A DNA stretch of 64,000 nt from Acidimicrobiaceae bacterium (lineage in GTDB: Bacteria > Actinomycetota > Acidimicrobiia > Acidimicrobiales > Aldehydirespiratoraceae), in the NCBI GenBank assembly GCA_016845585.1, contig JAERSO010000035.1:1-64000 (forward strand), in the 5' to 3' direction. The notes under the pieces are model-generated. The model saw nothing but the letters and a program-made list of their open reading frames with translations, did no database searches and had not been told where the DNA came from. The translations under genes were made by a program, and so were the position numbers. Shown here piece after piece: positions 1 to 25,301 of the stretch (its first letter is position 1; the number at the start of each line of letters is the position of its first letter).

Positions 1-143
1 CAGAGCCTCCGCGGAACCCAGGGCGAATCATGGACATGCCCATGGGGGCGATGGGCATGTGAGCAATCGCAAAGAGCGAGGCGACGGCCTCTGCCGGCCG
101 CGCTGCACATTCTTGGTCAGCGAGTCGTTCTGCCGAGCTAGGC

Positions 144-16851: not shown

Positions 16852-18042
16852 CTACCGGAGTTCGGCCGGGATGAGGATCGTGGCGTAACCCGGCCATGAG
16901 GTGTCATCGCTGGACTTGCCCGCTTCGTGCACGGCCAGCAGAGCCTCGCCGGCCACCGTCTGCTCCCAGAACCACGCCTTCAAGGCGTACGCACTCATGT
17001 CGCCGGGTTGCGCGCTCGCCGCCTCGGTGACCCAGGCCTTCAGGTCCTCACCCGCGAGGCGGAGGACGTCGCCCACCCCCACGCCGCCGGACGCGTCGGG
17101 CAAGACTCCATCGATGATCGCCACGAGCATCGCGGCGATGTCTTCGATGGCGAGGCCGGCACCGCCGAACGCCGTGCGGCCGGTGCGTTCGACGCTGAGG
17201 TCGTACCAGCTCGCGAGGGAAGCAATCTCGTCCGCCAGCCGATTGCCGAGCGACCCGTCGTGTTGGAGCGGGGCGTAGTTGACCGGGCACGACTGGCCAT
17301 CGAGCTCCGCTCCCCCATCGGCTTCCTCGGGATGGTCGACCAGGATCGGCACATCCTCGACGGCTTGTTCCAACAGACCGAGCGCGCCATGCAGCACCCG
17401 GCGCTGAAAGGCCGCATCGTTCGGCTGCCCGAGCGGACGGCCGAGGATGAACGGCACCCACAGCGCCCGCGGCGGCTTCATCACTTCGGAGTGTTCACGA
17501 ATCAGACTGATCTGGGTCGTGGCCAGTCCATCGGATTCGAGATAGTGCGAAAGCCCGCCCACGGCGCGCGTGCACGCGGGTCAGATGGGGATGAGCAGCA
17601 CCGCGTCGACACCGTCGCCGGCGAGATGCCGCGCCAACTCGTGTGCGGTGGCCTCCATCTGCTCCGGCGGTGTTGCACCCATGAAGGAGTAGTGCAGGTC
17701 GGCCACCGACCCGATCTCACCGTCGGCCGCCATCTCCCGCAGCCGTTCGATCGGCAGGGCGATGTTCACGTCGGCCTGGTAGCCCGTGCGGTCGAAGTTG
17801 GGCGAGATGTGCGACATCACGATGTCGGCGGCCGGCGTGTCGCCGGGGATGACCCGGTAGTCCTGTGCGCCGAGCGTGAACGGACGATCACCACGCCGAT
17901 GCAACCCGGCCGTCGAGATGATCGCCACCCGGCGTTCGCGCAGCGGTGGTCCGGCCACCGCAGGCTGCGTGTCGAATGTGGGCAGGTGCAGCCCCAGAAT
18001 CACGTTGCGTTCGGCTTCGGGGACGTCGATGAGGCGGGCCAT
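16852..18042 (-). CDS. Glycine/sarcosine/betaine/D-proline reductase selenoprotein B family protein, predicted selenoprotein
   Basis: Two open halves on the minus strand are in the same frame and separated by one UGA at 17581-17583. Read through as selenocysteine, they give 396 residues. The first half (153 aa) runs from MARLIDVPEAERN through IISTAGLHRRGDRPFTLGA and SFMGATPPEQMEATAHELAR to GVDAVLLIPI. The second continues PACTRAVGGLSHYLE, then PRALWVPFILGRPLGQPND. Together they make U-P-A-C, a UxxC redox motif at residue 154, as in the GrdB/PrdB superfamily. A hairpin follows the UGA at SECIS distance. In this family some members have Cys and some Sec. The role in an aerobe is unclear; the domain suggests reductive cleavage or redox chemistry. 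No sel genes are in this window, so reading through the UGA remains a prediction. Confidence 0.75.
17545..17583 (-). promoter_or_regulatory. SECIS-like hairpin after the UGA codon
   Basis: Downstream of UGA, positions 6-9 (GUGC) pair with 33-36 (GCAC), 12-13 with 27-28, and 15-18 (CGCC) with 22-25 (GGCG), closing a GUG apical loop at 19-21. Bacterial SECIS elements have a small apical loop carrying G near its start and lying about 16-37 bases from the UGA, which agrees. The outer CCCGC/GCGGG pairing is an alternative fold. Confidence 0.5.
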
Positions 18043-18065
18043 CCGGTGAGCGTAGGCGACAGGGT

Positions 18066-19853
18066 CTAATCGGTCACCGCCGCTCCCACGCCGGCGATCG
18101 CCACCCCGGCCGCACTCTCCGCACCCGGGTCGAGTGCTGCGTTCCCACCGACGACGACCGCGTTGACGGACTTCGCCACGTCCTTCACCGGCTCCTCCAT
18201 GTCCTCTGGCATGAGGATGTCGGCGGCTCCCTGGCTCACCACTCCGGCCGCATCACCGGCAGCCTTGACCGCCGCGATCGTGCGTGCTCCGCTGCGCAAG
18301 CCCGATCCGGCGGATGCGGCGCTGACGTTGCCCACCATCGAGGCCGATCCGACCCCGATGAAGATGCCGGTGGCCACTCCCCTGGCGAGCCCATCGGTCA
18401 GTTCGTCATCAGTCAGGCTGTTGACCGCCAGGATCGTCGACCCCGCGGCCACCCCGCCGGCTACTCCGGCCACCCCGGCGGTGACGATGAGGGCCATCGG
18501 CGTCGCAGTGCCCGCACTCAGGATGACAACCGCGCCTCCGGCAACCATCGCCGCGGCGTAGGCCAGCTCCTCTCGGTGCTCCTGCAGCCAGCTCTGATCG
18601 AACCATCCGTTCTCGAGTGCGAGGTTCAGCGCCACAGTCGCCGACTCCGGTAGCTCGTTCACCGACGCGCCGGCCAGGAAGTCCTCCAGATCGCGGCGGG
18701 AGTGCACCCCGTCGACTTCGCCGAGCGGATCGGCGGCGATGTCGATCTCATCCGCGAACGGGGCCAGGATGTGGGTGAGTTGCGCCTTGTACAGGAACGC
18801 TTCGAGGTCATCGTATGAAATGACGCCGTCGCCGCGTTCGGTGTTGCCGAAGTGTCCAGCGCCGAGGACCTCATCGTTCTCCCCCGCCGTGTCGAGGCGA
18901 TTCAGGAGCATCGGGTTGGCGAGCAGGGCTGCGGCCGCCATGACCTGGCCATCGGTGTATCGACATTCGTTCGACACGATGTGCTCGAGTTCCTCGATGG
19001 TGACACGGTCGTTCGAGATGCCACTGCCGGGAAGGCGATCCAACTCGGGGAAGTACTCCCGGAGCCCCATCAACGCGTCGAACTCGTGGGCGCTGACTCC
19101 CAGCCCTTGACCGGCGATGACCCTGCCCATCGCATCGATGAGCGAGGCGTTGCCGTCCGCCGCGTAGGCGAGCGCCGCGTCGAGGTCAGCGGCGTACTGG
19201 AACCCGAGCGCCACGACGGCCTCGGCCTCGGCTGCATCGAACCCGAGCAGATGAAGCCGGGTCAGGTCGGCGTCGATCCGGGCGATGTGCTCCCTCGCCT
19301 CGGGTGTGGTGATGCCGAACGCGGACACGATTCCGGCCACCCGATCACGGAGTACCAGTTCCGCGCAGGCTGCGTCGATCGCTTCGCCGTAGCTCAGGCC
19401 CCGATCGAGCTCCCCCGCAACGAGCCCCACCGCAAGGACATCGCCACCGAGCAGCGACAGAAGCAGTGCATGCCTCCGAGCGCGGTCCGCCACGAACGTG
19501 TCGTCCTGGGGTGGCCCTGCCCATGCGAGAATCCTGCCGTTCAGCCGGTTGAGCTCACCGACATCGGCGCGGACCTGTCGAACGGCAGCCACCCGCCGGT
19601 GGAGATCGGCCGCCAGCGACTCGATGTCTCGCACCACTCGTCGCAGCGCCAGATCGGGGTCGCCACGGCCAAGGCGGCGGGGGTCGAAGCCCAGTACGGC
19701 GGCCGCCTCGTCGAGGGCCCGGTCAAGGGCGAAGTAGTCGAGCGACAGCTCGGTAGCTGCCTGCGACATCGATCGTGCCAGTTCGTGGGCACGATCGACA
19801 TCAAAGACCAACAGGTCGGTCAGATCTGTTTCGGTCGCGAACGTTCGAGGCAC
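18066..19853 (-). CDS. Large protein with helical head and Gly-rich hydrophobic tail, unknown function
   Basis: A 595-residue protein with no recognised family. The N-terminal 100 residues are alpha-helical with ESX/WXG-like composition (RAHELARSMSQAATELSLDY). The middle, to about 330, is mainly helical. A degenerate EF-hand-like loop, ERGDGVISYDDLEAFLY, lies near 345. The C-terminal third is hydrophobic and glycine- and alanine-rich (YAAAMVAGGAVVILSAGTAT, ALIVTAGVAGVAGGVAAGST, TGIFIGVGSASMVG), looking like membrane-inserting hairpins. This layout resembles polymorphic-toxin or contact-delivered effector carriers, but no toxin domain is visible. Start GTG at 19853, with a palindrome directly upstream. 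It is convergent with nothing and lies 23 bases from the selenoprotein start. Confidence 0.75.
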   Translation of the reverse strand: MPRTFATETDLTDLLVFDVDRAHELARSMSQAATELSLDYFALDRALDEAAAVLGFDPRRLGRGDPDLALRRVVRDIESLAADLHRRVAAVRQVRADVGELNRLNGRILAWAGPPQDDTFVADRARRHALLLSLLGGDVLAVGLVAGELDRGLSYGEAIDAACAELVLRDRVAGIVSAFGITTPEAREHIARIDADLTRLHLLGFDAAEAEAVVALGFQYAADLDAALAYAADGNASLIDAMGRVIAGQGLGVSAHEFDALMGLREYFPELDRLPGSGISNDRVTIEELEHIVSNECRYTDGQVMAAAALLANPMLLNRLDTAGENDEVLGAGHFGNTERGDGVISYDDLEAFLYKAQLTHILAPFADEIDIAADPLGEVDGVHSRRDLEDFLAGASVNELPESATVALNLALENGWFDQSWLQEHREELAYAAAMVAGGAVVILSAGTATPMALIVTAGVAGVAGGVAAGSTILAVNSLTDDELTDGLARGVATGIFIGVGSASMVGNVSAASAGSGLRSGARTIAAVKAAGDAAGVVSQGAADILMPEDMEEPVKDVAKSVNAVVVGGNAALDPGAESAAGVAIAGVGAAVTD

Positions 19854-22417: not shown

Positions 22418-24526
22418 TCAATCGGACTGCCCCGCATAGCCGAGCGCGATCGGCGTGACCGGTCCGCCGCCGGTGGCGGCCAGCCGCTGTGCCACCACCG
22501 TCATCGTCCACTTCGAATCGACGATGTCGTCGAGCAGAAGGCACGGTCCGGGAGGCGGCGCGGCGCCGAGCTCGTAGGCCCCCCAGCTGTTGGCGACCTG
22601 CGTGGTGGAGTTGTTCATCGCCGGCTGCGGCTCGGTGGCGCGGACCTTGCGGACGATGTCGTGGACAGGGACACCCAATCGACCGGCCAGACGAGCAGCG
22701 AACCCCAGGATCAGATCGGGCCGCCGCTCTGACGGCACGAAGGTCAACCACCCGAACGGGCCGGGACTGCCGGGCTGGGCAGGGAGCCGCTGCCCGATCA
22801 TCTCCGCCATGGCGTCGACGAGTTCGTCAGCGAACGCACCACCGTCGAGACCCTGCCGCACGAGCGGGCCCCACCCCGGCCCGTCGAGCCGTGTGAGACA
22901 CCATCCCGGTTCCGCCCGTTCCTCGACGGCGATCCGCCCCGTGGGCTCGTCGAGTCCACTCGGCCACTGCTTTCGGGCACCGATCTCGATGTGTTCGTGG
23001 CGCAGTCGATCATCGGCTTCGGCAATGACCGACACCGCGGCGTCAACGCCGAAGCGTTCGCCGCGACAGTTGTCGCAGATGCCGCAAGCGTCAGTGTTGT
23101 GGTCGTCGAGCAGCGCCCTTATGAACGCCATCCGACAGCCGTCGTACTCGAGATACTCCTCCATCGCCTTCTGCTCGACGCGCCGCCAGTCGTTGACGCC
23201 GCCGGTGCGCTCCACCGGGTATGTCCATGGCGACAACGTGCGGCTCCATCCCTTGTCCGACTTGGCGACCGCACCTTCCACTTCGAGTTGAACGAGCAGG
23301 TTGTCGAGGCGGGCGGTGCCGATGTTGACCCGAGCCGCGAGCTGGCCGACCCTGAGTGGACCCGCCTCCTCCTCCAACGCGGCGAACACGGCTGCCACTT
23401 CTTCTTCCGATGGGAACGCCCGGGTGATGAACCAGTCCTGGATGTCTCGGTCTTCGCTGCCGGAGAAGAGGATGCCGTAGGACTCATCGAGCGCTCGACC
23501 GGCCCGCCCCACCTGTTGGTAGTAGGCGATCGGGCTCTGCGGGGTCTGGTAGTGAACAACGAAGCCGACGTCGGGTTTGTCGTAGCCCATACCGAGCGCC
23601 GAGGTGGCAACGAGGCACTTCACCTCGTTGGCCAGGAAGCGACGGAGGGTCTCGGACTTGTCGTCGGGTCCGCCGTCACCACCCATGTACGAGGCGGCCT
23701 CGATCCCGTGTTCGCGCAGAAACTCGGCGACGACGAACACATCACGCCGGGTGAGGCAGTAGACGATGCCGCTGCCCGGAAGGTCGGGAATGTTGCGCAC
23801 GAGCCAGGCGAGGCGGGCGTCGTGGCGCCGCTTGTCGGTGTGGACCTCGAGCCGCAGGCCCTCACGGCCCAGCGGGCCCCGGACGGTGAGGAGGCCCTCG
23901 CCGAGCTGTGACTCCACGTCCTCCACCACTCGGTCGTTGGCGGTGGCCGTGCAACCGATGACCGGCACGCCCGGCGGAAGACCCTGGAGGAAACGGCCGA
24001 TGCGGCGGTAGTGGGGCCGGAAATCGTGGCCCCAGTCGCTGATGCAATGCACCTCGTCGACCACCAACAACCCGACCCGGCTCCCGAGCTGGGGCAGCCA
24101 CTCGCGGCGGAAGGCGTCGTTGGCCAGGCGCATCTCGGAGATCAACAAGAGGTCGATCTCACCGAGCAGGAGTCGCTCGTGGATCTCGTCCCAGTCATCT
24201 CGATTGGCTGAGTTGACCACCGCGGCCCGCAGCCCCATCCGACCGGCCGCTTCCATCTGATTGTCCATCAGCGCGATCAGCGGCGACACGAGCAGGCTGG
24301 CGCCGAGGCCGCGGTCACGAAGCATGCGCGTGGCGATGAAGTAGACCGCCGACTTGCCCCACCCCGTGCGCTCCACGACCAGCACCCGCCGACGATCCTC
24401 GACCAGCGCGGCGATCGCCTCGAGCTGGCCCGGCCGGAACTGTGCGCCGGGTCGGCCCGTCAGTGCCTGAAGATGAGCCAACGCTTCCGCCGCGAGTTCC
24501 GTCACGCCCACAGGTCTAGCGGACAC
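22418..24526 (-). CDS. RecQ-family ATP-dependent DNA helicase with C-terminal phosphoribosyltransferase-like domain
   Basis: A 702-residue protein. Superfamily-2 motifs are visible: motif I RTGWGKSAVYF (residues 53-63, TGWGKS instead of TGTGKS), motif II VVDEVHCISDWGHDFRPHY (DEVH), motif III CTATAN, motif V VKCLVATSALGMGYDKPDVG, motif VI QQVGRAGRAL, and the RecQ zinc site from CRMAFIRALL to CGICDNC. After residue 600 a different domain begins with LGFAARLAGRLGVPVHDIVR, and CLLLDDIVDSKWTMTVVAQR has the Asp-Asp pattern of a type I phosphoribosyltransferase. The fusion suggests coupling of unwinding with nucleotide metabolism, or a structural role. The start ATG at 24526 and all helicase motifs look intact. 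Confidence 0.9.
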   Translation of the reverse strand: MSARPVGVTELAAEALAHLQALTGRPGAQFRPGQLEAIAALVEDRRRVLVVERTGWGKSAVYFIATRMLRDRGLGASLLVSPLIALMDNQMEAAGRMGLRAAVVNSANRDDWDEIHERLLLGEIDLLLISEMRLANDAFRREWLPQLGSRVGLLVVDEVHCISDWGHDFRPHYRRIGRFLQGLPPGVPVIGCTATANDRVVEDVESQLGEGLLTVRGPLGREGLRLEVHTDKRRHDARLAWLVRNIPDLPGSGIVYCLTRRDVFVVAEFLREHGIEAASYMGGDGGPDDKSETLRRFLANEVKCLVATSALGMGYDKPDVGFVVHYQTPQSPIAYYQQVGRAGRALDESYGILFSGSEDRDIQDWFITRAFPSEEEVAAVFAALEEEAGPLRVGQLAARVNIGTARLDNLLVQLEVEGAVAKSDKGWSRTLSPWTYPVERTGGVNDWRRVEQKAMEEYLEYDGCRMAFIRALLDDHNTDACGICDNCRGERFGVDAAVSVIAEADDRLRHEHIEIGARKQWPSGLDEPTGRIAVEERAEPGWCLTRLDGPGWGPLVRQGLDGGAFADELVDAMAEMIGQRLPAQPGSPGPFGWLTFVPSERRPDLILGFAARLAGRLGVPVHDIVRKVRATEPQPAMNNSTTQVANSWGAYELGAAPPPGPCLLLDDIVDSKWTMTVVAQRLAATGGGPVTPIALGYAGQSD

Positions 24527-24590: not shown

Positions 24591-25200
24591 ATGGCCCAGA
24601 TCAAATCGTCCGACGCCCTCCCCACCGACACACCCGCCGGCGCCGAAAACTACACCACCGGTGGCCGACTGAAGAAGCGGTACTACGAGCAGCGGCGAGA
24701 TCGTGCTGTTCGACCGCAGCTGGTACAACCGCTCGAATGTCGAATGGGTGATGGACTTCTGCACCGAGGACCAGCACCAGGAGTTCCTTCGTACCTGCCC
24801 GGAGTTCGAGCGGATGCTGGTGCGCTCCGGCATCGTCATCCTGAAGTACTGGTTCTCGGTCAGCTACGGGGAACAGGAACGTCGGTTCAAGGCTCGCAAC
24901 GAAGAGCCGTTGAAGCGCTGGAAGCTCTCCAAGATGGACCTCGAAGAGCACCGTCTCTACACCCGGTACTCGATGGCGAAGGACACCACGTTCCAGTTCA
25001 CCGACATCAAGCAGGCGCCATGGTTCGTCGTGCCCTCCGACGACAAGCGGCGGGCACGGCTCAACTGCATCGGCCACATCCTGTCGCGGATCCCCTACGA
25101 GGACGTCGTCCCGGAACCGATCGACATCCCCGTGCGCGAGGACCAGTCCTACATCCGCCCCCCGATGCGCGAGCAGACCTTCGTGCCCCTCGCGTACTGA
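24591..25200 (+). pseudogene. Polyphosphate kinase 2, Walker A region deleted
   Basis: PPK2 transfers phosphate between polyphosphate and nucleotides. The N-terminus (GGRLKKRYYEQR) joins directly to GEIVLFDRSWYNR in another frame; the intervening roughly 55-60 residues, with the Walker A loop (G-x-D-A-A-G-K-G) and its helix, are gone. The remainder is well preserved: MDFCTEDQHQEFLRTCPEFE, LKYWFSVSYGEQERRFKARN, DIKQAPWFVVPSDDKRRARL and the C-terminal SYIRPPMREQTFVP. Without the P-loop it cannot bind nucleotide, so it is a pseudogene. Codons after the junction read cleanly, so sequencing error would have to be a large deletion. Confidence 0.82.
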
Positions 25201-25301
25201 TCCGGACCGCTCGCGCCAGGCGAGTGCCTAGTGGGTGAACTTGCCCTGGCGAATCCTGGCGGCGTCCATCAACTCGACCGGAAGCGGCTGCGGCCCGAGG
25301 A

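What the first reader, a model, noticed from the sequence alone, without database searches (positions are those of the whole stretch)
16852..18042. Predicted selenoprotein: in-frame UGA joins two halves of a GrdB/PrdB-family protein
Reading UGA at 17581-17583 as selenocysteine gives an uninterrupted family member with motif U-P-A-C. A hairpin with a GUG loop at bases 19-21 after the UGA matches bacterial SECIS geometry. Ordinary gene callers would report two short genes or a pseudogene.
Basis: partly seen in the sequence, partly recalled or inferred. Interest (0 to 1): 0.8.

Follow-up and report, generated by a model that had tools for sequence, protein, structure and literature searches.

The report
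UGA-encoded PrdB-like selenoprotein in Acidimicrobiales
One gene on the minus strand is interrupted by a UGA that almost certainly codes for selenocysteine, making a 396-residue redox enzyme of the already described PrdB/GrdB selenoprotein group; its existence is ordinary for that group, but what the enzyme does in this probably oxygen-respiring bacterium, which lacks its usual partner proteins, is unknown.

Summary
On the minus strand (18042 to 16852) an ATG frame runs through a UGA (17583-17581) to TAG, giving 396 residues with U154-P-A-C. Purifying selection acts on both sides. Of 51 family genomes searched, 33 carry relatives; every match crossing this position has a UGA. Cys homologues exist in the phylum. 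The genome has tRNA-Sec, SelA, SelB and SelD (itself with an in-frame UGA).

The hairpin after the UGA is no more stable than shuffled sequence (z about 0), so alone it proves nothing. Across 53 distinct relatives, however, it shows strong compensatory change with the GU-containing loop fixed at +19..21, and the Cys homologue has lost it: a real SECIS is very likely.

The protein scores far below the PrdB (105 of 300 bits) and GrdB equivalog cut-offs. It belongs to a separate long clade with an extra C-terminal helical domain. PrdA, GrdE and GrdA were not found in the genome, which has haem-copper oxidases. It is PrdB-like, not a demonstrated D-proline or glycine reductase. PrdB-labelled selenoproteins have been known from marine metagenomes since 2005. 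Verdict: new member of a known kind, substrate unknown.

The parts
16852..18042 (-). PrdB-like selenoprotein gene, 396 residues, ATG to TAG, with one UGA read as Sec
17581..17583 (-). UGA codon for Sec154, first residue of the U-P-A-C redox motif
   Evidence: same codon in every long-form Acidimicrobiales and proteobacterial relative extracted that spans it; Cys in L098 and L115
17548..17574 (-). SECIS-like hairpin: core stem at +12..17 with +23..28, outer pairs at +8,9 with +31,32
   Evidence: 93.2% of cells paired, covariation score 0.451 against at most 0.182 for slid controls
17560..17562 (-). GUG apical loop at +19..21 after the UGA
   Evidence: fold; G and U of the loop invariant in 53 distinct sequences
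17362..17946 (-). PrdB-like core, residues 33-227, predicted alpha/beta domain with Sec between a strand end and a helix start
   Evidence: TIGR04483 105 bits; AlphaFold2 model pLDDT 87.6
16855..17250 (-). C-terminal all-helical domain, residues 265-396, shared by the long-form clade
   Evidence: no Pfam family at its cut-off, no clear fold match
18066..19853 (-). 595-residue gene of no known family, 23 bp upstream on the same strand; possible operon partner, doubtful
   Evidence: a gene of similar length and start lies just upstream in L049 and L051 but not in L050

Best explanation
The gene encodes a selenoprotein. During translation SelB, bound to Sec-tRNA-Sec and docked on the hairpin that starts just after the UGA, inserts selenocysteine at residue 154 (inferred from sequence evidence). 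The product is a single-chain thiol/selenol oxidoreductase. Its PrdB-like alpha/beta core places Sec154 and Cys157 (UxxC) at the N-terminus of a helix (predicted), where the selenolate probably attacks or reduces a small-molecule substrate and is regenerated through a selenenylsulfide with Cys157 (inferred from the UxxC motif and from GrdB/PrdB chemistry). The helical C-terminal domain is typical of this clade and may shape the substrate pocket or mediate oligomerisation (guess). The protein does not work as D-proline reductase or glycine reductase in the known way, because PrdA, GrdE and GrdA were not found in the genome. The Sec decoding step is close to certain; the substrate is unknown. 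The confidence given is for Sec decoding of this PrdB-like protein; for the stand-alone, non-proline function it would be about 0.55.
For: tRNA-Sec at 64 bits, cut-off 47. selA and selB are adjacent on contig C48; selD itself carries one in-frame TGA. 33 of 51 family genomes have relatives, and all matches that span the Sec position carry a TGA; the genome holds five such paralogues. Long forms in Alpha- and Gammaproteobacteria also carry TGA there. Selection is purifying on both sides. Hairpin pairs switch GC/AU/UA in step with each other: pairs +16/+24 and +15/+25 are paired in 53 of 53 sequences. All six core pairs form at the UGA in 44 of 68 extracted genes, against 0.35% of other codon positions. 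The Cys homologue L098 keeps 2 of 6 pairs. Published bacterial SECIS constraints are met: loop with G in its first two positions, 18 nt from UGA to the loop, MFE below -7.5 kcal/mol. In Rhodobacteraceae relatives the gene lies beside selD-like, selB and selA genes. Haem-copper oxidase genes are present.
Against: No expression or mass-spectrometry data exist. The window's own hairpin is not unusually stable and has a G-G mismatch at +14/+26 (sequence; one search counts five of six core pairs). The genome is a 176-contig draft with 5.49% estimated contamination and the Sec machinery is on other contigs; the same-genus genome G021 nevertheless has both tRNA-Sec and the 80% identical orthologue. 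Three genomes with relatives show no tRNA-Sec at 60 bits or more (G018, G019, G030: fragmented or incomplete). The substrate and electron donor are unsupported.
Confidence: 0.93

Rival explanations
1. The UGA is a real stop and the locus is a pseudogene, or two separate genes made by a recent nonsense mutation.
For: UGA is an ordinary stop for neighbouring genes.
Against: The same UGA is kept at 75-80% identity in three sister sequences and in Proteobacteria. dN is well below dS after the UGA. Five paralogues in one genome all keep it. A decay explanation cannot give a conserved codon with a covarying hairpin.
Confidence: 0.02
2. UGA is read through or reassigned without selenium, for example as Trp, or as part of programmed readthrough.
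For: Readthrough would also give a full-length product.
Against: UGA serves as a stop in neighbouring genes. The aligned residue in the UGA-free relatives checked is Cys, not Trp (L098, L115). The genome has tRNA-Sec, SelA, SelB and SelD.
Confidence: 0.02
3. The protein is a genuine D-proline reductase PrdB subunit whose partner PrdA was missed or replaced.
For: Best NCBIfam match is PrdB, 105 bits over residues 33-227. Metagenome surveys label such proteins PrdB.
Against: 105 bits against a cut-off of 300. No PrdA match in the genome, although no genome searched there reached the PrdA cut-off either. No Gly_reductase (PF09338) match while the same search rings in 15 of 396 genomes of the phylum. 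The long C-terminal domain lies outside the 238-position PrdB model. The long forms make a separate clade (100/100).
Confidence: 0.08

Closest known systems
'Proline reductase PrdB' selenoproteins of Sargasso Sea and GOS metagenomes (PMC1088965, PMC2398784)
   Same: UxxC motif, pfam07355, Sec in most members with some Cys homologues, abundant in marine bacteria
   Different: Those were metagenome sequences named by similarity. I could not align them here, so identity with the long-form clade is likely but untested.
D-proline reductase PrdB (TIGR04483)
   Same: Homologous core around the Sec residue, residues 33-227
   Different: 105 bits against a 300-bit cut-off, extra C-terminal helical domain, no PrdA found in the genome
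Glycine/sarcosine/betaine reductase GrdB/GrdF/GrdH (TIGR01917, TIGR01918, NF040794, NF040795; Pfam GRDB)
   Same: Pfam GRDB above its cut-off over residues 20-150; Sec in a UxxC motif in both
   Different: Covers only the end of the GRDB model (positions 208-344); below the equivalog and subfamily cut-offs; GrdA and GrdE-type subunits absent from the genome

Membership tests
Bacterial selenoprotein (Sec encoded by UGA) | Conserved in-frame UGA with Sec/Cys alternation among homologues | tested here: met
   UGA in all matches crossing the position within the family, Cys in L098 and L115
Bacterial selenoprotein (Sec encoded by UGA) | SelA, SelB, SelD and tRNA-Sec in the genome | tested here: met
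[quoted passage not shown]
   GUG loop at +19..21, -15.2 kcal/mol, covariation
Bacterial selenoprotein (Sec encoded by UGA) | Selenium in the protein | not testable with these tools
   needs 75Se labelling or mass spectrometry
Pfam GRDB (PF07355) superfamily | Score above the curated cut-off | tested here: met
   35.4 against 22 bits, residues 20-150
D-proline reductase PrdB (TIGR04483) | Score above the equivalog cut-off of 300 bits | tested here: not met
   105 bits
D-proline reductase PrdB (TIGR04483) | Partner PrdA encoded in the genome | tested here: not met
   no match in the own genome; no genome in that search reached the PrdA cut-off, so the control is weak, but the wider Gly_reductase Pfam search had 15 positives and none here
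Glycine/betaine/sarcosine reductase selenoprotein B (TIGR01917/TIGR01918) | Score above the curated cut-offs (602.2 / 65.45 bits) | tested here: not met
   39.3 and 46 bits
Glycine/betaine/sarcosine reductase selenoprotein B (TIGR01917/TIGR01918) | GrdE-type subunit and GrdA in the genome | tested here: not met
   absent from the own genome; over-cut-off positives in 15 and 14 of 396 phylum genomes

The most novel reading that the evidence does not exclude
The long-form PrdB-like clade, with a C-terminal helical domain and no pyruvoyl partner, is a distinct single-chain selenoenzyme of aerobic Actinomycetota and Proteobacteria. It would act on a substrate other than proline or glycine, and the long-standing metagenomic label 'proline reductase' would be wrong for it.
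Probability: 0.55. Interest if true: 0.5.

Novelty: new member of a known kind. Interest (0 to 1): 0.33.

Why it matters
Gene callers that read UGA only as stop will miss or split this gene, and a 380-codon antisense ORF overlaps most of it, so this genome is liable to be misannotated at five places for this family alone. One of the abundant marine selenoprotein groups is labelled 'proline reductase PrdB' by similarity. The absence of PrdA, GrdE and GrdA here, alongside oxidase genes, suggests that the label should not be taken as a function, and the paralogues and Cys homologue found here give material for testing what the enzyme does.

Tried and rejected
Hairpin stability as evidence: rejected, because the MFE equals that of shuffles. 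Openness of the frame as evidence: rejected, because 23 TGAs in the window pass a similar filter. Rfam over the window at gathering thresholds: no match. Co-occurrence of the family with tRNA-Sec across 51 genomes: 30 of 33 genomes with the gene and 13 of 18 without have a tRNA-Sec at 60 bits or more; consistent but not discriminating. Solved structures by sequence: no relative. Fold searches: the core matches only common Rossmann-like arrangements (best Z 8.2 with a LacI-type regulator, rmsd 3.5 over 142 residues; B12-binding domains also listed) and the C-terminal domain nothing above Z 4.4, so no function could be read from the fold. Gene neighbours differ between clades: SelD/SelB/SelA plus a Mo oxidoreductase and GCV_T in Rhodobacteraceae, TauD plus a phosphonate-type binding protein in other Alphaproteobacteria, TauD plus a Mo oxidoreductase beside the own short paralogue on C63. 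No common pathway could be inferred.

Full report
What is there. The finding gives no strand; the gene lies on the minus strand. From ATG at 18042 the frame reads 153 codons, meets TGA at 17583-17581, and continues 242 codons to TAG at 16854-16852. Read as Sec, the TGA gives a 396-residue protein with ...LLIPI-U154-P-A-C-T-R-A-V-G. Pfam GRDB matches residues 20-150 above its cut-off (35.4 against 22 bits), and NCBIfam PrdB matches residues 33-227 at 105 bits, below its 300-bit cut-off. The half after the UGA matches no family alone.

Is the UGA translated? Relatives at 75-80% identity cover the whole protein with the same single TGA. Of 51 genomes of the same family, 33 hold relatives; of 65 matches, all that cross the Sec position carry a TGA, and the two without one do not reach it. 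Proteobacterial relatives at 38-56% identity also carry it. Nei-Gojobori dN/dS against three relatives (L018, L050, L019) is low on both sides: dN 0.08-0.15 with dS 0.63-1.10 before, dN 0.17 with dS 0.82-1.25 after. Codon-position GC is the same in both halves. A stop or a pseudogene would not show this.

Is it selenocysteine? The genome carries tRNA-Sec (64 bits, C48:32175), selA (C48:53709), selB next to it (C48:54850) and selD with its own in-frame TGA (C147). Cys stands in place of Sec in L098 (TPACPMCTRTV, long form) and L115 (short form). L098 sits inside the Sec-containing long clade, which suggests a Sec-to-Cys change. UGA remains a normal stop for neighbouring genes. The draft assembly has 5.49% estimated contamination, but same-genus genome G021 independently has the orthologue and tRNA-Sec.

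The SECIS. The evidence lies in comparison. In 53 distinct sequences aligned without gaps from the UGA, the eight-pair stem forms in 93.2% of cells. The covariation score is 0.451 against 0.208 for shuffles and at most 0.182 for slid partners; 56 cells have changes on both sides, against 15.7 in shuffles. Pairs +15/+25 (CG, UA, UG, GC) and +16/+24 (GC, AU, UA) never break, and +15 and +24 are third codon positions, so many of these changes are not explained by the protein sequence. All six core pairs form at the UGA in 44 of 68 extracted genes (some loci are duplicates) but at 0.35% of other codon positions; the Cys homologue L098 keeps two of six. Published constraints (PMC13188914) are met. 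The window gene itself keeps five of six core pairs.

Which family? A tree of the core shows the long forms (66 rows, Actinomycetota and Proteobacteria) as one clade with 100/100 support, apart from the shorter forms (rooting arbitrary, some long branches). The own genome has three long and two short UGA-containing paralogues (C35, C140, C22; C63, C17). The long forms share a C-terminal domain that is predicted all-helical and has no Pfam family at its cut-off and no clear fold match. D-proline reductase needs PrdA, and glycine reductase needs GrdE-type subunits and GrdA (established knowledge; GrdA/GrdB/PrdB roles reviewed in PMC13188914). The own genome has none by Pfam PF09338, TIGR04480 and PF04723. 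The PF09338 and PF04723 searches ring in 15 and 14 (over cut-off) of 396 genomes of the phylum, so those absences mean something; TIGR04480 gave only weak matches anywhere. The genome also has haem-copper oxidase genes, consistent with an aerobic life rather than Stickland fermentation.

How it probably works (inference). The AlphaFold2 model (pLDDT 87.6) puts Sec154 just after strand 147-151 and before helix 155-170, a usual place for a nucleophile. With Cys157 it forms a UxxC redox pair. I expect a selenolate that reduces or cleaves a small substrate and is recycled by a cellular thiol system. Neighbour genes differ among clades, so the substrate cannot be named.

Novelty. PrdB-labelled UxxC selenoproteins are known from the Sargasso Sea (42 genes, PMC1088965) and GOS (235 Sec and 110 Cys forms, PMC2398784). 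A full-text search found no paper holding 'selenoprotein', 'selenocysteine' and 'Acidimicrobi' together, which is weak evidence only. This is a new member of a known kind; the open part is function.

Noticed in passing
window 24703-25200 (+), with 24591-25238 in another frame: A PPK2-type polyphosphate kinase matches only positions 93-226 of the 229-position Pfam model; the N-terminal part is missing and the upstream ORF lies in another frame, suggesting an internally truncated gene or an assembly problem.
   Followed up: partly
own genome: C35, C140, C22, C63, C17 and C147: Five UGA-containing PrdB-like paralogues (three long, two short) plus a UGA-containing selD in one Acidimicrobiales-like genome, a selenoprotein-rich case for Actinomycetota.
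   Followed up: partly
window 18066-19853 (-): A 595-residue protein with no Pfam or NCBIfam match lies 23 bp upstream of the selenoprotein; a similar gene precedes it in L049 and L051, but in L050 a MazF-like pair stands there (by eye).
   Followed up: partly
window 16927-18069 (+): A 380-codon antisense ORF overlaps most of the selenoprotein gene and is longer than either half; likely to be called as a false gene.
   Followed up: yes
window 22418-24526 (-): RecQ-like helicase of 702 residues with a weak phosphoribosyltransferase-like match at its C-terminus (15.4 bits, below cut-off).
   Followed up: no
L114 (G164) and other matches: Some short-form relatives in the phylum have two or three in-frame TGAs, e.g. 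PA-U-P-I-U-H in L114, suggesting members with two Sec residues or damaged copies.
   Followed up: no
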